Shown one piece after another: positions 2,973 through 23,460 of a stretch of 26,874 bases of DNA (position 1 is its first letter; each line of letters starts with the position of its first letter). The stretch is taken from IMG/VR virus record IMGVR_UViG_3300046453_000093, positions 1-26,874 of that record. The stretch is one strand, 5' to 3'. Origin of the DNA: a virus. A program made the translations under genes and the position numbers. The notes under the pieces were generated by a model. The model saw only the letters and a list, made by a program, of their open reading frames with translations. It was not told where the DNA came from and made no database searches.

Positions 2973-3281
2973 TTATTTTTTATTTTCTGTTTGCCAGTAC
3001 CCTTTTGGGTTATATGGACTATGGTAATCTTTTTGCAGTTCTATTTTTTCTGCATCTTTATATTTCTCTAATAACTCCACAGCTTTCAATAATGCTATGT
3101 TAAAATCTTGATTTCTATATTCTATATCGCAGACACCTAAATGTCCCCTCTCAGTAACATGGACACGATAAAAGCCAATCATTTTTTCTATGTATGCTAC
3201 TACATTACCTTCGCAACGCTGATAGTATTTCCACCTATCTGTATAGAACCATCCCTCTATTTGGTTATGTCCCCAAATCAT
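2973..3281 (-). CDS. Hypothetical protein of 102 residues
   Basis: I do not recognise it. I chose the ATG at 3281 (MIWGHNQIEGWFYTD) because GAGGGTG lies six to seven bases upstream; the longer frame to 3356 adds 25 residues without a ribosome binding site. The protein is rich in aromatic residues (Trp, Tyr), has no membrane segment, and ends with a charged tail. It is transcribed toward the DnaD-like replication gene, and the hairpin at 2869-2943 lies between them. It may be a small plasmid maintenance or control protein, which is a guess from position. Confidence 0.55.
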   Translation of the reverse strand: MIWGHNQIEGWFYTDRWKYYQRCEGNVVAYIEKMIGFYRVHVTERGHLGVCDIEYRNQDFNIALLKAVELLEKYKDAEKIELQKDYHSPYNPKGYWQTENKK

Positions 3282-3628
3282 CTTATTCACCCTCTTCATT
3301 ATTTTTGGGTAACACAAAAACACCCAAGTATAACTTGCGTGTGCATAAGATGGCACAGCAAAAAATACAAATAAACCTATTTATGACACTGCTACAAAGG
3401 TGGCAATCCTACAAAAAGTTAATACAAAGGTAAAGTTATCAACATGTGGATAACTTTGGTTTTTCTACGCAAATAAATCATAACATATTTCGATATATTT
3501 TGTAAACAATAAAAAAAGATGTTGCATGTTATTGTCGATTGTTGTATTATAACTATAGAACTTAATATTTGCCAAAGCAAAAAACAAAAACCTATAATCT
3601 ACAAAAGAAGTACACTACGCTGAAACAG
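3282..3628. other. Candidate plasmid origin region with paired DnaA boxes
   Basis: This gene-free stretch carries a 26-bp near-perfect palindrome at 3432-3457. Its right half contains TGTGGATAA, an exact inverted DnaA box (TTATCCACA), and its left half TTATCAACA, one base off. TACAAAGGT is repeated at 3393-3401 and 3423-3431. A very AT-rich tract follows (3470-3560), fitting a melting region. DnaA boxes next to AT-rich DNA are established parts of many theta origins; that this one is used here is inference. Confidence 0.5.
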
Positions 3629-3721: not shown

Positions 3722-4006
3722 TCACAGCTTGTCAAACTTGCTTGCTACATGCCTTATTAATTCTTCTTGATTAATAATTGACGGTTCAAGCTTCTTAACG
3801 ACAGATTCTGATAGTTTTACCATTGGCTTGGGAAGTATAACTTTATTTTGTTTAGGCGCTAGTCCTCTATATTTTAGTCCATCCCTCATGAGTTCCTTGC
3901 AATATCCTGCAAAGTTATAATTCACTTCTTGAAGAATTGCAATTAGGTCAGCATCACCGATTTCACTAAAACTGATAGAAGCCCTATTGTTCTTGTCTAA
4001 GCCCAT
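3722..4006 (-). CDS. parR: ParR-like centromere-binding adaptor
   Basis: 94 residues, immediately downstream of the actin-like gene with a three-base gap; its AAGGAAGGG ribosome binding site lies inside the end of parM, so translation is coupled. The N-terminal half (RASISFSEIG, then DADLIAILQ, then NFAGYCKELMRDGLKYRG) fits a ribbon-helix-helix DNA-binding fold, and the C-terminal half, rich in Lys, Val and Pro, would contact the filament. In type II segregation systems this protein wraps the centromere and caps ParM filaments. Family assignment rests on gene order, size and fold pattern, since these adaptors diverge quickly. It probably also represses its own promoter, which lies next to the repeat array. 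Confidence 0.75.
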   Translation of the reverse strand: MGLDKNNRASISFSEIGDADLIAILQEVNYNFAGYCKELMRDGLKYRGLAPKQNKVILPKPMVKLSESVVKKLEPSIINQEELIRHVASKFDKL

Positions 4007-4009
4007 GTT

Positions 4010-5113
4010 TTACCCTTCCTTTGCTACTAACCCTTCTTTGCTTTCAGTGATTTTATACGAGCCACCTGAAGTCCTTACAACCTGTTTGCCATTCTTCTTA
4101 GCATGACGAACACCATATTTGCGTAAACCTCTTGCTGTATTATGAACACCAAGAAAGATTTTTTCGAATTCGTATTCTTCAAGGTATCTCTCCAAATACT
4201 CTTTTAAAACCACTGTTCCACCACCAGTGAAAATTACAGCGTCTAGGTACGGAATAGAGTTTCTAAATAAGGTTTCCCATTCGGAAATCAATTCACCCGC
4301 ATGTAATTCAAATACTTCGTCTACAATTGGTTGGATATTAGTCCCGCCTGAAATATACCCTTGCTTGATTAGTTTTGGCAATACCCCCTGTGGATATTTT
4401 TTGCCAAAAGTTTCTTCAATACGTCTACCAATCTCAACATAAGCTGAGTACATCCCATTATTATTATGTTTTGTCAGGTCTGTAATTGGGTCTAAATCAT
4501 TTAAAGTAAGAAAGTTGACTGTTCCTGCACCAATATCCACTACAGAGACAAATTTGGTTGCTAATTCAGGGTTTGAAATTTCACCATCATCACTTAAGAT
4601 AAGGTCACAAAATGTTCCGAAAGGCTGTGACACCACAAGTACTTCTTTGATATCAACAGTTTTTTCAAAATCAGAACCATCAGCTAAAGTCAGCTTAATA
4701 ACGTGCTTTTTTTTGAAGATTTTTTGTAAATCACTTATTCTACTCTCGTTTTCAGAATGTTCCACAGGTAAGCCTAATACAATTGGGTCAACTTTAACAA
4801 CGTCATGGTCTTCAGCTAACATTGCCAATCCTGCTTTTGCAAGTGCGGGGAACATCGGATGTTTGTGTTTGTTGTTCCCACCAATCCAAGTGGTCTGCAT
4901 GTCTTGGTCTACTGCACCCTGACCAACTAAGAATTTCTTATTGTCATACTCTACTACAATATGAGATAAAGGGTCTTTTTCCTTACTGCTTAATACTGTG
5001 TCGTGTTTCTCCTTATATGTAGTTACATTGGATGGATAGTAAACTTGTTGTTTTCCGTTAAAGCCTTTTCCTTCACCGTATCCATCATCATAGCCCCATA
5101 CTTCTATTGTCAT
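4010..5113 (-). CDS. parM: ParM-like actin family segregation ATPase
   Basis: 367 residues with the landmarks of plasmid actins: phosphate-1 loop GYDDGYGEGKG (residues 7-17), phosphate-2 loop VVDIGAGTVNF (191-201) and the adenosine-binding FTGGGTVVLKEYL (295-307). The protein should polymerise into ATP-driven filaments that push or pull plasmid copies apart, bound through ParR to parC. The start ATG has GGGGAGG about 10 bases upstream. The gene sits between a periodic centromere-like array and parR, which is the classical parC-parM-parR order. The C-terminal tail is Lys/Gly-rich. Bacillus plasmids and phages carry several ParM/Alp subtypes; I cannot say which without alignment. The gene is intact. 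Confidence 0.92.
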   Translation of the reverse strand: MTIEVWGYDDGYGEGKGFNGKQQVYYPSNVTTYKEKHDTVLSSKEKDPLSHIVVEYDNKKFLVGQGAVDQDMQTTWIGGNNKHKHPMFPALAKAGLAMLAEDHDVVKVDPIVLGLPVEHSENESRISDLQKIFKKKHVIKLTLADGSDFEKTVDIKEVLVVSQPFGTFCDLILSDDGEISNPELATKFVSVVDIGAGTVNFLTLNDLDPITDLTKHNNNGMYSAYVEIGRRIEETFGKKYPQGVLPKLIKQGYISGGTNIQPIVDEVFELHAGELISEWETLFRNSIPYLDAVIFTGGGTVVLKEYLERYLEEYEFEKIFLGVHNTARGLRKYGVRHAKKNGKQVVRTSGGSYKITESKEGLVAKEG

Positions 5114-5149
5114 AGTTAAATATTCCTCCCCTATTGTGATAATACTACA

Positions 5150-5177
5150 TTATTAGAATATCATTAATAGAGGTCAA
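5150..5177 (-). promoter_or_regulatory. Candidate parMR promoter
   Basis: On the minus strand TTGACC (plus 5172-5177), 16 bp and TAATAA (plus 5150-5155), directly downstream of the repeat array. Repression by ParR bound to the array would be expected from known par systems. Confidence 0.45.
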
Positions 5178-5190
5178 AATCAACAAAATT

Positions 5191-5370
5191 ATGCCATTTT
5201 CTCTTACATTTTCCTACAAAATCCGACTTTATCCTATAATATCTTAAAATATCGGAGAAAATCTTATAATATCGCAGAAAATCTTATAATATCATACAAT
5301 ATCAGATAAAATCTCATAAAATAAGATAATATCGGAGAAAATCTTACTTTATCCTACTTTTCCAGTTATT
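5191..5370. repeat. parC: parC centromere: 10-bp tandem array
   Basis: From 5221 to 5360 fourteen units follow each other at exactly 10 bp; twelve begin ATC and then continue as NNANAAW (for example ATCTTATAAT at 5261 and 5281, ATCGGAGAAA at 5251 and 5331). Degenerate units extend it to about 5191-5370. One unit (5321-5330) has ATA in place of ATC. A period of one helical turn places all sites on one face of the DNA, as needed for a ParR superhelix. Lying just upstream of parM, it is almost certainly the centromere, and possibly the operator of the operon. Confidence 0.85.
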
Positions 5371-5389
5371 TACAAATAAAATCCAACCA

Positions 5390-6451
5390 TTATAGTTGGA
5401 TTTTCTTCAAATTATTCATTAATTCAATTTGAACATTTCTACTCGATTGTTGCACAAGTTTCATCAATTGTTCTTGAGTCAAGTTTTCCAATGATGATAT
5501 GTCAACCTTCTGACCAATTTTCAATCCAACCATTTCACTAAATTTTTTCTTCTTTTTCATGTAGTGTTTCATGGTTGTACCAAATGATTTATGGTCGCCT
5601 TGTTCTGCCACTGCCATAATGTCCCCGCCACTGATTTCATACGCTTCATTGATTCCGCATTTCTTTAAACTGTGAAATGTAATGTCATCATCTAATTTTA
5701 ATTTCCCTCTTAAACGTTGCATCATTACAACAACTGTCTTTTTCTCTAATGGAAAAATACGTCTATCTTTATGCTTCTTTTTTAATCCCATTAGTCTGTC
5801 ATGAAGTTCATCAGTTATTGGTTTTTTGCTGATTTGTTTTCCTTTACCGATAGCTTCCTCTTCAGCACAAAGTACCCAAACTCCATCAATATTTTCAATA
5901 TTATCCCAAGTCAGGTTGAGTAGTGAGTTTTGTCTAAAACAAGTAATAACAGCAGTTTCCATCAAAGATGCTTTTATATCGCCTTTCTTTTCATCTTTTA
6001 CCAACTCAATCATATCCAATACTTCTTCCCAAGATAATACTCCATAAGATTCGGATTCGCCTTTAATCTTGTCAACATTAAACCAAGCTTCTTTTACTGG
6101 CAGGTCTTTTGCTTCAAGTCTACTGTATAATTTTTTGACTGAACTAATTTTTCTAGCAATTGAACTAGGGGCATAAGGCTTTCCGTCATTGTAAGCAATG
6201 TCATTATTTTTTGCTAATTGTAATTGATATGCTTCAACATCATCAACAGTAATGATTAAATCTTCAATTGTTAACATTTCAAGTGCCTTGTATCGAACTG
6301 CTCTAAAAAATTGTTTAATATCAGCTTCATAACTGGATGCAGTATTGGTACTGTTTAATGCCTTGGTTTCTAAAAAACATGAGATATAAGAATAAGCGTT
6401 CTTTTTCAGTTTGGATACATTGTTATCATATTTGGGTTGTTTCTTTGCCAT
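5390..6451 (-). CDS. Tyrosine recombinase (integrase/resolvase family)
   Basis: 353 residues from the ATG at 6451. An ATG nine bases further upstream abuts the AGGAG site and cannot be used. The N-terminal SAM-like core-binding domain covers about 15-120, the catalytic domain 135-300. Catalytic candidates are Arg173 (CFRQNSLLNLTW), Lys205 or 209, His260, His287 and Tyr297 (MKHYMK). The usual HxxR is HSLK here, so the second arginine is replaced by lysine. On a plasmid-like element the enzyme most likely resolves multimers or circularises the genome, perhaps acting at the inverted repeat at 6483-6506; chromosomal integration is the alternative. A helical C-terminal extension follows the tyrosine by about 55 residues. 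Confidence 0.88.
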   Translation of the reverse strand: MAKKQPKYDNNVSKLKKNAYSYISCFLETKALNSTNTASSYEADIKQFFRAVRYKALEMLTIEDLIITVDDVEAYQLQLAKNNDIAYNDGKPYAPSSIARKISSVKKLYSRLEAKDLPVKEAWFNVDKIKGESESYGVLSWEEVLDMIELVKDEKKGDIKASLMETAVITCFRQNSLLNLTWDNIENIDGVWVLCAEEEAIGKGKQISKKPITDELHDRLMGLKKKHKDRRIFPLEKKTVVVMMQRLRGKLKLDDDITFHSLKKCGINEAYEISGGDIMAVAEQGDHKSFGTTMKHYMKKKKKFSEMVGLKIGQKVDISSLENLTQEQLMKLVQQSSRNVQIELMNNLKKIQL

Positions 6452-6482
6452 AATTACCATCTCCTAGAATTATTTTCTAAAT

Positions 6483-6506: not shown

Positions 6507-6635
6507 CCGTCAATGATAAATGGAATAATTTTCTGTATATTTTTTAAGAGGTCGGGGCATACCTATTCTGAAGTCACAAAATGACTCGTACAGCATTGTA
6601 ATCGCTCCATGACTAAACCCTTTGACTTCCATTTG

Positions 6636-6666
6636 AAAGCCCTGTAGAAGACCACGCAGGGCTTTT
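6636..6666. terminator. Terminator-like hairpin
   Basis: AAAGCCCTG (6636-6644) pairs with CAGGGCTTT (6657-6665), with a short T run on the plus strand. There is no plus-strand gene before it; it may stop antisense transcription or end a small RNA. The rest of 6461-7046 holds no protein gene that I can see. Confidence 0.45.
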
Positions 6667-6729
6667 GGTGACGAATTATGGGATTTGGTTTTCTTGTTTT
6701 TATTAGAAATCTATCTGTCAGTAAAATAC

Positions 6730-6805
6730 GTTAACTTTTTACCAATGTGTTTAATATAGGTTATATTTATCATTAATATTAAAAAGGTAAACTATTTACC
6801 AATGT
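6730..6805. repeat. Two 19-bp direct repeats, one inside a palindrome
   Basis: GTTAACTTTTTACCAATGT (6730-6748) and GTAAACTATTTACCAATGT (6787-6805) match at 17 of 19 positions and are 57 bp apart. The second is part of the perfect inverted repeat GGTAAA-CTA-TTTACC (6786-6800). They look like protein-binding sites, possibly for TubR, for the ribbon-helix-helix protein or for the recombinase. Confidence 0.5.
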
Positions 6806-6821
6806 AAAAATATAGACTAAT

Positions 6822-6853
6822 ATACTCTACTACTTTAATACTCTACTACTTTA
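6822..6853. repeat. Perfect 16-bp tandem duplication
   Basis: ATACTCTACTACTTTA occurs twice back to back (6822-6837 and 6838-6853), in AT-rich non-coding DNA downstream of tubZ. The repeat may be an iteron pair or a recent slippage event. The surrounding 6860-6980 is AT-rich and shows no gene. Confidence 0.6.
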
Positions 6854-6982
6854 GTATACTAAAATAAAGTGATTATATTATTATTAAATAAGAGAGAATA
6901 AGAGGATTATTAGTCTGTATTATATTACCGTAAAAAAGATAACCTATTTCCAAAAAAGTTGTGTTTACAAGGATTATTAACT

Positions 6983-7018
6983 AAAAACCCATCTATCCCT
7001 GTCGGTAGATGGGTTTTT
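6983..7018. terminator. Bidirectional terminator after tubZ
   Basis: AAAAACCCATCTA (6983-6995) and TAGATGGGTTTTT (7006-7018) form a perfect 13-bp inverted repeat with A and T runs at its ends, placed 28 bases beyond the tubZ stop. Confidence 0.85.
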
Positions 7019-7046
7019 GAGTATGCATTTCTCCTGTCTTCTATCT

Positions 7047-8159
7047 TTATCTCTTATATCTACTGAGGATGTCTGTTACCGATTTCTTAGACTGTTTTGG
7101 CTTTGTTCTTAATCTTGCAGAAAAATCTTGGTTGACCGTTACTTTATAATTTTGGTTTTCTTCATCATCAAACATTTGTTCCATTCTTGTTTCCTGTTCT
7201 TTAATGATTTGAGAAATATCATTCAACCTTGTATTAATCCATGAAAGACCAGTTAGGATAGATAAAACAGTACCTCTCTTTTCATGATAATTTCCCTCAA
7301 ATAAATCAATAGGCATTCCTTTGTCAAATGCTCCAAAGATGGATTTATAATTTAAGAATTGCATAAGTGATTCTTCAGCATCCAGTACAATACCTGATTT
7401 CATAACTCTATTATATTCAATAGGGGAGAACACTGATTCTTCCCAAGACATCCGAATTTTATCAGTAACAGTCTCAACACTGAATTTTATATCCTCACTG
7501 AATTTAGATATATCTGTTTCTGCAATTAGACCAATTCCTTTTGTGTTCAAGATGGATAGCAAATCTTTCCTGTCAAGGTTTCCATTCTTAGATGTCTTGG
7601 TTGTGTAGGAATACAATTCGTCTAAGAGATTAACAGTGGTTTCGTTTATTGTCTTGTATAGTTGATTTTTTGCATTAACATTAATTCTGACTTTTTCATT
7701 ATCAATTGGCATAATGCAAATATCTAATTTAGATAATTCTTCAAAGGTTTGCAAACAATTCATTTGATTGCTGACAACCTCTGTTTTGTCAGGGATGATT
7801 GGCATAGCTACAAAAGTTTTTTCAGGCATTTCATTCGCCAAAATTTCTAGAAGGATAGGGGCTATTCCACTACCACTACCACCACCTGTAGAAAAAGTCA
7901 CAATGATAATTTCAGGATTGATAAATGTCTGTTTGACAAAATTTAAAGCTGATTCCCAATTGTTTGCCATTAGTCTGATAGCTTCATCACGATTATGACC
8001 TACACCTTCAGAACCAACTAGCTTAAGTGTGTTCTCAACATGTTCCAAAGAATCTAAATCAGACTTAGAAAAGTTAATTGCCCCTGTTAGAAAATTATGC
8101 TTACTGGATTCGTCTGCAATATTGCCACCCGCACCACCAACACCTAATATTCCTATCAT
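7047..8159 (-). CDS. tubZ: TubZ-like tubulin/FtsZ family segregation GTPase
   Basis: 370 residues. The N-terminus has the nucleotide-binding loop GVGGAGGN (6-13), and the tubulin signature is GGGSGSG (92-98) in the form typical of TubZ/RepX. The T7 loop NLDRKD (194-199) carries the catalytic aspartate of the NxDxxD pattern. The C-terminal tail is very basic (KPKQSKKSVTDILSRYKR), as expected for the part that contacts TubR bound to its centromere. The protein should form treadmilling GTP filaments that drag plasmid DNA. The start overlaps the tubR stop in ATGA, so the two are translationally coupled. In some Bacillus plasmids the homologue was first described as a replication factor (RepX); here the TubR partner favours segregation. 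Confidence 0.92.
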   Translation of the reverse strand: MIGILGVGGAGGNIADESSKHNFLTGAINFSKSDLDSLEHVENTLKLVGSEGVGHNRDEAIRLMANNWESALNFVKQTFINPEIIIVTFSTGGGSGSGIAPILLEILANEMPEKTFVAMPIIPDKTEVVSNQMNCLQTFEELSKLDICIMPIDNEKVRINVNAKNQLYKTINETTVNLLDELYSYTTKTSKNGNLDRKDLLSILNTKGIGLIAETDISKFSEDIKFSVETVTDKIRMSWEESVFSPIEYNRVMKSGIVLDAEESLMQFLNYKSIFGAFDKGMPIDLFEGNYHEKRGTVLSILTGLSWINTRLNDISQIIKEQETRMEQMFDDEENQNYKVTVNQDFSARLRTKPKQSKKSVTDILSRYKR

Positions 8160-8452
8160 TCTTCCATCTCTCCCTCTAATGATTTTTCAATTGCCAACAC
8201 GCCTAAATCTGTAACATAGAGCTTATGTTCCCTAATGCCTGTCACAGTTTCAACAAAGTTTGCTACATCTAGTCTGTAAATGGTTTTTCTTAGATTGGCT
8301 TCAGATATATCAGCTACTTCAGATAACTCCTTTTTCTTCATTGCTTTAAATGGTGCAGTTGCTTTATTGTCAATCAAAACGCCTAAGACAGAAATATCAT
8401 CAATAGTTAGACGATTAACAATATGAAGAAAGTAGTTTTCACTATCAATCAC
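8156..8452 (-). CDS. tubR: TubR-like winged-helix centromere-binding protein
   Basis: 98 residues, close to the size of known TubR proteins. The pattern LTIDDISVLGVLIDNKATAP, then FKAMKKKELSEVADISEANL and then RKTIYRLDVANFVE, with a final wing and YVTDLGVLAI, fits a dimeric winged helix. It starts with GTG at 8452 behind AAAGGGG with about 10 bases spacing. As DNA-binding adaptor and repressor it would link plasmid DNA to TubZ filaments. Position directly before tubZ with a four-base overlap is the conserved operon order. Confidence 0.85.
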   Translation of the reverse strand: MIDSENYFLHIVNRLTIDDISVLGVLIDNKATAPFKAMKKKELSEVADISEANLRKTIYRLDVANFVETVTGIREHKLYVTDLGVLAIEKSLEGEMEE

Positions 8453-8536
8453 TAAAAATCAACCCCTTTCAATCGTGATATTAAAATATATTGATTGATA
8501 CTACTATATTAAAAAACATCTAAAAATATACCTTTT
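8453..8536. promoter_or_regulatory. tubR upstream region, possible tubC/operator
   Basis: An 84-bp AT-rich gap with CAATC (8480-8484) inverted against GATTG (8502-8506) and two copies of ATATTAAAA. Centromeres of tubRZ operons usually lie just upstream of tubR. The repeats here are too few to be certain, and 6730-6853 is a competing location. Confidence 0.3.
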
Positions 8537-9142
8537 TTATACATTTTTTCTTAACCCTAAAATACTCCACTCTCTCGCTTCATCAATCAGCATTTCTACA
8601 ATTTCAATAAAAGTTATCTGTTCTTTAAAGGGATTGTTCTTATATAGATACTTTAAAGTATCTCTTAGCAATTTTTTTTGTAGTTCGCTTAAATTTGTCG
8701 TATATAAACGGATTAATCTGTCTATAATGTCAATATCACGTATAGCACACTCAAGTAGAAGTCTTGTAGCTGATGATACAGACGTTAAACCCAATGAGAA
8801 TGCTAATACTTCCATACTCTCATTAAATTCCTTGTTGAAGCGTGTAGAGACTCTTTTAGATGGTACGTTCTTAACAATGTATCGGCTATGGGCTAAATTC
8901 GGATTTCCTCTATATATAGTGTTTTCGTGTTGGTAATCTCTTCGGAAATATTGAGAAATAAAATCAAGAACTTTCCTTGAACGCAAGCCATCCATACAGA
9001 TAAATTCAACTACATTTTTAATGGGTTGACCTGTGATGTCTGCAAGGTTGGCAATGCAATTGTAGAGATGAATTGGAACTGTCGGCTTAACATCCACCTT
9101 CTTATCACTTCTTTCCTTCCTATTACTTACCTTCTCCCTCAT
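8537..9142 (-). CDS. Putative regulator with two ribbon-helix-helix-like domains
   Basis: 201 residues. After a basic, disordered N-terminus, residues 17-55 (VDVKPTVPIHLYNCIANLAD, then a second helix) and 96-135 (KRVSTRFNKEFNESMEVLAF, then LGLTSVSSATRLLLECAI) each have the short strand plus two helices of a ribbon-helix-helix unit; the second is the clearer. A helical C-terminus follows. The ATG has GAGGTGAT seven bases upstream. It is divergent from the helicase operon across a region with three inverted repeats, so it is a good candidate for the switch regulator of the element, and it reads into tubRZ. An additional centromere-binding factor is the alternative. I know no named homologue. 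Confidence 0.6.
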   Translation of the reverse strand: MREKVSNRKERSDKKVDVKPTVPIHLYNCIANLADITGQPIKNVVEFICMDGLRSRKVLDFISQYFRRDYQHENTIYRGNPNLAHSRYIVKNVPSKRVSTRFNKEFNESMEVLAFSLGLTSVSSATRLLLECAIRDIDIIDRLIRLYTTNLSELQKKLLRDTLKYLYKNNPFKEQITFIEIVEMLIDEAREWSILGLRKNV

Positions 9143-21912: not shown

Positions 21913-23460
21913 TTGTCGGAAAATAATACAGAAACACAAAATGAACCCATTGACTATCTATTGGAGTTAAGTAGTGTACAGGACTTTATTTCCCAATATG
22001 GTTCAGGCGCAGGGCTTAAAGACGTTTCCTTAAAGGAAATCTACGATATGTTGAGAAATCCATATAAAAATATTACTAGAATTCAAAATACTTCTAGATA
22101 TTTTAGTAATAGATTTGGGATTGTTAAGGATGTCAATGAAGCATTTAAGACTTTGCCAAGCTTGAACTATCATCTAGTTTGGTCAAATTTTGAAAATCCA
22201 ACCAAGATTGCAAAATTTGAAAAGAAGATTTATGAATTGCTAGAAACAATCAATATTAAAAAGGTTGTACGTGATGGATTATCAGAGCAAGCAGAAGTAG
22301 GAACAGTTGTTGCTGTTAATAGAAAAAACAAATTCGTTCAATTCCTTGATTTAGATAAGACAAGAATAAATTCAATGATTAATGGTAAGTGGATTGTGGA
22401 AGTTGATTTGTCAACTATTTCAGGCTCAGTAAAAGACATTAAGGCTCAAATAGACTCATTACCTGAAGAAGTAACAATTGGTAAATATAATCAATATCGT
22501 GCTAAGGGTCAAGAACATCGTTTTGTACCTATTAAAAATGCACAGGTGTTAAATATTCGTGGTACAAGAAATCAGCCATTTGGTTTACCTTTGACTTTAT
22601 CTGCATGGGGAACTTTATTGCATAAGGCATTGATTGAACAGGTTGAAAAATCTATAGCTGATAGAAAAATAAAATCATTATTAGTTATGTATGTTAAAAG
22701 TATCTTACAGAATTCAGAGCCATATAAGCCACCTAAGAAAGATATTATTGATGATTATTTTAGGAATCTTACCAAGCTTATAAAGAAGAAAGATGAATCC
22801 AATAGGTCTGCAACAGATAATGTTGGCACAGGTGTCATGGTTTTGCCAAGCTTCTTCGACTTAAAAGAGGTTGAATTGGATACAGAGATGTTTTCCAAAG
22901 AGTTGTATGACAAGTTAGATAATGATTTGTTTGCAAACCTTGGAATCTCAAGTGCATTAGTCTATGGCGCAGGAAAAAATAGTAACTATGGTGTATCTCA
23001 AATGAATAGTGAAAAATTCTATCGCTATATATTTACTGCTTTAGAAGATTGGGAATATTTTTTCAATGACTTAATAAAACAATTCTTACCTAGCGGTTTA
23101 GATTGTAAGATATTCTTTGATAGAACAGCTATTGGTGATAGAGAAAGTGATATTACAGCCAAAAAAGATTTCTACATGCAGACAGGTATATTTGTACCGT
23201 ATGCTGAAACCCTTTTAGGTGTTCCTTACAGATACGCTCTTGGTCTTAAAGAATATCAAGATAAAGTACTAAAATTAAATGAGTTAATCTATCCACCAAT
23301 AAATCCTTACACCCAAACCACAGATGGTAGTGGTAATAGTGGTGGAAGTGGTGAAAGTGGCAAGAATGGAAGACCTGCAAATAAGAAAAAAGATGATTCT
23401 GAAAACAATATAAAGGCGAAAGGCAATAAGAGTAATAGTATTCCTTCCCCTTCGGATTGA
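21913..23460 (+). CDS. Portal protein
   Basis: 515 residues. Start TTG at 21913 behind a perfect AAGGAGGTGG. Position directly after terL, length and sequence features (IRGTRNQPFGLPLTLSAWGT, later SALVYGAGKNSNYGVSQMNSE, a helical clip and stem) fit phage portals. The last 50 residues are a low-complexity Gly/Ser then Lys/Asn tail (DGSGNSGGSGESG), probably disordered. It would form the twelve-fold channel at one capsid vertex. Family-level name not assigned. Confidence 0.88.
   Translation: MSENNTETQNEPIDYLLELSSVQDFISQYGSGAGLKDVSLKEIYDMLRNPYKNITRIQNTSRYFSNRFGIVKDVNEAFKTLPSLNYHLVWSNFENPTKIAKFEKKIYELLETINIKKVVRDGLSEQAEVGTVVAVNRKNKFVQFLDLDKTRINSMINGKWIVEVDLSTISGSVKDIKAQIDSLPEEVTIGKYNQYRAKGQEHRFVPIKNAQVLNIRGTRNQPFGLPLTLSAWGTLLHKALIEQVEKSIADRKIKSLLVMYVKSILQNSEPYKPPKKDIIDDYFRNLTKLIKKKDESNRSATDNVGTGVMVLPSFFDLKEVELDTEMFSKELYDKLDNDLFANLGISSALVYGAGKNSNYGVSQMNSEKFYRYIFTALEDWEYFFNDLIKQFLPSGLDCKIFFDRTAIGDRESDITAKKDFYMQTGIFVPYAETLLGVPYRYALGLKEYQDKVLKLNELIYPPINPYTQTTDGSGNSGGSGESGKNGRPANKKKDDSENNIKAKGNKSNSIPSPSD

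What the first reader, a model, noticed from the sequence alone, without database searches (positions are those of the whole stretch)
5191..5370. Centromere-like array with strict 10-bp period
At least fourteen units of ATCNNANAAW run without a single phase shift from 5221 to 5360, just upstream of parM. A whole-turn repeat of this length and regularity puts all sites on one DNA face. Known parC sites have repeats of other lengths, so this may be a distinct ParR binding mode.
Basis: partly seen in the sequence, partly recalled or inferred. Interest (0 to 1): 0.72.

Follow-up and report, generated by a model that had tools for sequence, protein, structure and literature searches.

The report
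Phage parC centromere, 10-base repeats
This phage carries a standard actin-type DNA segregation module whose docking site is a row of about seventeen 10-base repeats, a layout already known from plasmids, so the finding is real but ordinary.

Summary
The array is real. Window 5190-5359 holds about 17 head-to-tail 10-bp units with no phase shift; the strong core is 14 units at 5220-5359. Core periodicity is 9.5 bits, against 1.6±0.41 in 2000 dinucleotide shuffles. Next to it lie a promoter-like site, parM (4010-5113, -) and a small gene in the parR position (3722-4006, -). It is best read as the parC centromere of a type II ParMRC partition module on a 90.9-kb phage record.

The novelty argument fails. 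A paper read here states that pB171 ParR binds 10-bp repeats, R1 ParR 11-bp and pSK41 ParR 20-bp (PMC9426499). A review states one ParR dimer per iteron and refers to 10-bp repeats (PMC5016525). Relatives also have 10-bp arrays of other sequence: P. larvae pPLP3, P. peoriae pPlas1 (about 28 units) and a pSK41-type locus. Others have 11-bp arrays. An exact 10.0-bp step also does not keep sites on one face: at 10.5 bp/turn they drift about 274° over 16 steps.

ParR binding is untested, and its ribbon-helix-helix fold is not shown. More unusual is a TubZ-like gene (7047-8159) in the same phage.

The parts
5190..5359 (-). parC-like centromere: about 17 direct 10-bp units, consensus WATCNNANWW on + (WWNTNNGATW on the parM strand); strong core 5220-5359 (14 units), weaker units at 5190-5219
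   Evidence: only one such array in the 90.9-kb record
5149..5177 (-). promoter-like site TTGACC-17-AATAAT between the array and parM, about 12 bp from the edge of the array
   Evidence: consensus scan, 10 of 12 matches (5 sites found against 3.4±1.9 in shuffles, so weak alone); position read from the sequence
5125..5131 (-). GGGGAGG, ribosome-binding-like sequence ahead of parM
   Evidence: read directly from the sequence
4010..5113 (-). parM: actin-like segregation ATPase, 367 aa
   Evidence: Pfam ALP_N 4.8e-21 and MreB-like_C 8.5e-14; PHROG 691 partition protein 4e-63; ParM structure 3js6 1.7e-12; conserved DDGYG / DIGAGT / TGGG segments in the alignment with 5 relatives
3722..4006 (-). parR candidate: 94-aa adaptor, starts 3 bp after parM; N-terminal strand-helix-helix-like segment and conserved C-terminal tail
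   Evidence: position; PHROG 3536 1.6e-05; alignment with 21 ParR-position proteins; AlphaFold helices 19-26, 32-47, 80-92, pLDDT 69

Best explanation
The array is parC, the centromere of a type II (actin-based) ParMRC partition module carried by a temperate, probably plasmid-forming, Bacillales-type phage. Inferred mechanism: ParR dimers bind successive 10-bp units, one dimer per unit. Because 10.0 bp is slightly under a helical turn, the bound dimers follow a gentle superhelix, so about 17 units form a little more than one 12-dimer turn of the ring or solenoid described for known ParR. The ParR C-terminal tails face inward and capture the end of a ParM filament; ATP-driven filament growth pushes sister molecules apart. 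Binding beside the promoter probably also represses parMR. Shown here: the array, its phase, the gene order, ParM homology, and 10-bp and 11-bp arrays at the same position in relatives. Inferred: ParR binding, segrosome geometry, autoregulation and segregation.
For: Array statistics. ParM assignment. ParR-position gene 3 bp downstream, with a tail ending in [LF][DN]x[FLI] in 20 of 22 aligned rows (tally read by eye). Of 48 parM-upstream regions tested, 12 had a periodic segment at empirical p <= 0.01: period 10 in 8 (one a near-copy of another), 11 in 3, 6 in 1. Long 10-bp arrays with unrelated unit sequence in L002 and L003. A pSK41-type locus whose ParM matches 3js6 at 6.7e-183 also shows period 10. 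Published geometry and repeat lengths (PMC9426499 passages; PMC5016525 passages). Phage B83 has iterons in the 165 bp before its parM (PMC6669507 passages).
Against: The ribbon-helix-helix fold of the 94-aa protein was not confirmed: model pLDDT 69 with no strand assigned, no Foldseek match, no Pfam match for it and no RHH family in any of 22 members, and no meaningful profile match to the pSK41-type ParR (probability 0.7%). In 36 of the 48 upstream regions no period was significant at 0.01, mostly in Herelleviridae-like phage loci, so a long array is not universal in this ParM clade. No binding data exist.
Confidence: 0.9

Rival explanations
1. The array is an attachment-region element: binding sites of an excisionase (recombination directionality factor) or arm sites of the tyrosine recombinase encoded next to it (5390-6460, -).
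For: The recombinase gene lies 30 bp away; excisionase sites can be direct repeats one helix turn apart (abstract start of PMC7498355 as shown in the search listing).
Against: About 17 contiguous units is far more than an excisionase site needs (recalled). Relatives have 10-bp arrays ahead of parM with no recombinase gene annotated next to the array (L002, L003).
Confidence: 0.04
2. The array is a set of replication iterons bound by the phage's initiator-like protein (1880-2746, -).
For: A replication-initiation-like gene is present in the window (PHROG 9773, 2.2e-09); iterons are tandem direct repeats near origins (recalled).
Against: Plasmid iterons are usually longer and fewer (recalled). 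The array sits beside parM, 2.4 kb from the initiator gene, and the position matches parC in relatives.
Confidence: 0.03
3. The array is only phased A-tract DNA, a bend without a specific binder, or a regulatory site that has no centromere role.
For: AAAAT tracts recur at unit junctions (5246, 5258, 5278, 5308, 5318, 5338) and an array next to the promoter could act as operator alone.
Against: The C of ATC is kept in 16 of 18 and the A at position 7 in 17 of 18 in-register units tested, which bending alone does not need; centromere and operator roles coexist in R1 parC (PMC5016525).
Confidence: 0.03

Closest known systems
pB171 parMRC (E. coli)
   Different: Its DNA was not fetched or compared here, because it is a virulence plasmid (recalled); unit sequence and unit number were therefore not compared
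pSK41 parMRC (Staphylococcus)
   Same: Closest solved ParM is 3js6, which is the pSK41 ParM (recalled); continuous array (PMC5016525); a pSK41-type locus shows period 10 by the same measure
   Different: Published as 20-bp repeats (PMC9426499); AT-alternating units; ParR not recognisably similar in sequence
R1 parMRC (E. coli)
   Same: Direct repeats plus parM and parR
   Different: 11-bp repeats (PMC9426499), split in two blocks around the promoter (PMC5016525)
ParMR loci of Paenibacillus plasmids pPLP3 and pPlas1
   Same: ParM 40% and 35% identical over the alignment and long strict 10-bp arrays at the same position
   Different: Other unit sequences; pPlas1 has about 28 units and an extra gene between array and parM
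ParM loci of Bacillus Herelleviridae phages and phage B83
   Same: Phage-borne parM with a small downstream gene; B83 has iterons before parM (PMC6669507)
   Different: Herelleviridae-like arrays are short, mostly not significant one by one; B83 DNA was not compared (one search found no record)

Membership tests
Type II partition system (ParMRC) | Actin-like ParM motor | tested here: met
Type II partition system (ParMRC) | Small parR gene directly downstream of parM | tested here: met
   3722-4006, 3 bp after parM, same strand; counterpart ORFs by position in 38 of 39 viral loci, one of them (L044) an artefact from a broken parM frame
Type II partition system (ParMRC) | ParR has an N-terminal ribbon-helix-helix DNA-binding domain | tested here: inconclusive
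   helices in the right order but pLDDT 69, no structural or family match
Type II partition system (ParMRC) | Conserved ParR C-terminal tail | tested here: met
   [LF][DN]x[FLI] at or next to the C-terminus in 20 of 22 rows (read by eye); binding of the tail to ParM not tested
Type II partition system (ParMRC) | parC of tandem direct repeats in one locus upstream of the operon | tested here: met
Type II partition system (ParMRC) | ParR binds the repeats; ParM filaments segregate DNA | not testable with these tools
   needs DNA-binding and stability assays
   10-bp repeats are in print for pB171 (PMC9426499) and found here in relatives

The most novel reading that the evidence does not exclude
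One temperate phage runs two cytomotive segregation machines side by side: this actin-type ParMRC with its 10-bp centromere, and a tubulin-type TubZ/TubR pair 2 kb away (7047-8452). They would share the work, for example plasmid-prophage partition by ParMRC and DNA positioning in lytic growth by TubZ.
Probability: 0.25. Interest if true: 0.55.

Novelty: new member of a known kind. Interest (0 to 1): 0.2.

Why it matters
It gives a clean, long, uninterrupted 10-bp phage parC with a divergent ParR, useful for testing how many dimers a segrosome needs and why arrays in one ParM clade use 10 or 11 bp while unit sequence changes freely. It does not change the known picture of ParMRC. The neighbouring TubZ-like gene is the more unusual feature.

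Tried and rejected
A close-relative scan with the single ParM found nothing, and a genome-contig scan with the ParM alignment found no relative; the viral scan with the alignment gave 39 loci. AlphaFold on ParR with 22 rows (21 relatives chosen from the 35 distinct ORFs, plus the window) gave a low-confidence model, and Foldseek and the second aligner found no match. Profile search of the PDB with the ParR alignment gave only chance hits, and a single-sequence search gave one chance hit. Comparison with the pSK41-type ParR was uninformative. A distinct binding mode was rejected on literature and comparison. 'All sites on one face' was rejected on arithmetic. One search used mononucleotide shuffles with a floor of p = 0.005 and 48 non-independent regions, so its counts are a survey, not a strict test; three further Herelleviridae loci (L004-L006) were looked at only, where L004 leaned to period 10 (z 4.9) and L005 and L006 showed nothing clear. 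A first version of that survey stopped on a missing file and was redone.

Full report
The observation. Reading 5140-5400 in register shows units TATCCTATAA, TATCTTAAAA, TATCGGAGAA, AATCTTATAA and so on at 5220, 5230 ... 5350, with weaker in-phase units at 5190, 5200 and 5210. Tandem Repeats Finder gives periods 10, 20 and 30 with scores 68, 101 and 115. The column information of 5220-5359 at period 10 is 9.54 bits, against 1.60±0.41 in 2000 dinucleotide shuffles (maximum 3.46); no 140-bp stretch of the window away from the array exceeds 3.55. Phase coherence peaks at exactly 10.0 bp. In the 90.9-kb record this array is the only one of its kind; outside it only isolated pair matches occur.

The surroundings. 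On the minus strand the order is recombinase gene, array, promoter-like TTGACC-17-AATAAT, GGGGAGG, parM (367 aa) and, after 3 bp, a 94-aa gene. ParM matches actin-like families (Pfam ALP_N 4.8e-21; PHROG 691 'partition protein' 4e-63), and its nearest solved relative is 3js6, a ParM (1.7e-12). L047's ParM, annotated as parM, matches 3js6 at 6.7e-183, and its ParR matches 2q2k. That 3js6 and 2q2k are the pSK41 proteins is recalled, not from a call. The 94-aa protein has no Pfam match but weakly matches PHROG 3536 and aligns with 21 ParR-position proteins that mostly share an N-terminal arginine followed by an alternating hydrophobic stretch, a helix with a conserved D, a second helix with an L..DG.K.R core, and a C-terminal [LF][DN]x[FLI] tail.

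Relatives. All tblastn relatives of ParM are below 60% identity in both phages (102 records) and plasmids (175 records). The viral scan with a 6-row alignment gave 39 loci. I tested the 350 bp before parM (in L003 before the gene ahead of parM) in 48 regions: the window, 8 plasmid loci and the 39 viral loci. Twelve had a periodic segment at empirical p <= 0.01: period 10 in eight (window, L002, L003, L009, L020, L042, L047, L050; L009 repeats the array of L002), period 11 in three (L007, L008, L045) and period 6 in one (L051). Of the other 36, 17 had period 10 as their best. The unit sequence differs between arrays: window nTanGATatT, P. larvae tTtTAaTAca, P. peoriae anntnnTatG over about 28 units. 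So the period, not the sequence, is what persists.

Mechanism. PMC5016525 (passages read) states that parC is a tandem array upstream of the operon, continuous in pSK41 and split in R1; that each ParR dimer binds one iteron; that 12 dimers make one turn of a superhelix with DNA on the outside and tails inside; and it refers to contacts at the 5' ends of 10-bp repeats. PMC9426499 (passages) gives 11 bp for R1, 10 bp for pB171, 20 bp for pSK41 and 17 bp for pCW3. A continuous array of about 17 units of 10 bp fits that geometry: a little more than one turn. With 10.5 bp per turn of free DNA, consecutive sites rotate -17 degrees, so sites drift rather than stay on one face. Steps from ParR binding onward are inferred.

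Verdict on novelty. A 10-bp parC is already described, phage-borne ParM modules with iterons are described (B83, PMC6669507 passages; plasmid prophages, PMC8026635 passages), and relatives have the same layout. This is a new member of a known kind.

A side observation is stronger than the finding. The same phage has a tubulin-family gene at 7047-8159 (Pfam Tubulin 1.1e-14; best solved match labelled TubZ, 4xcq, 1.8e-17), preceded by an overlapping gene for a 98-aa protein with a weak winged-helix-type match (Rrf2 0.0041, below cut-off). Among 21 of the 39 ParM-bearing viral records, none has a tubulin-family match, while the control genomes ring in 13 of 14 (several records are fragments). Only phage G (two records) matches it in the phage collection. 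Two paper searches (listings only) showed no title or abstract start describing both systems in one phage, which does not prove absence.

Noticed in passing
7047-8159 (-) and 8156-8452 (-): TubZ-like tubulin GTPase gene with an overlapping upstream 98-aa, weakly winged-helix-like (TubR-like) gene: a second, type III-like segregation module 2 kb from the ParMRC module. No tubulin in 21 other ParM-bearing viral records searched.
   Followed up: partly
8453-8540 and 6540-7040: Non-coding stretches flanking the TubZ/TubR pair with few repeats: an 18-nt direct repeat at 8452 and 8520, and a 25-nt repeat ending TTTACCAATGT at 6724 and 6781 plus a 16-bp tandem at 6822. Candidates for a tubC or an origin; no strong array.
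   Followed up: partly
5378-5404: Perfect 10-bp inverted repeat AAAATCCAAC / GTTGGATTTT overlapping the recombinase stop codon, perhaps its terminator, read directly from the sequence; the terminator scan did not list it.
   Followed up: no
L003 about 3075-3354: P. peoriae pPlas1 carries about 28 strict 10-bp units, longer than the window's array, with an additional gene between the array and parM.
   Followed up: partly
L007, L008, L045 upstream of parM: Relatives with an 11-bp instead of a 10-bp period: the period changes within one group of related ParM proteins.
   Followed up: partly
21913-23460 (+): Portal protein is 50% identical to Geobacillus virus E3, next best about 23%: the phage lies near GVE3 in its structural module.
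   Followed up: no
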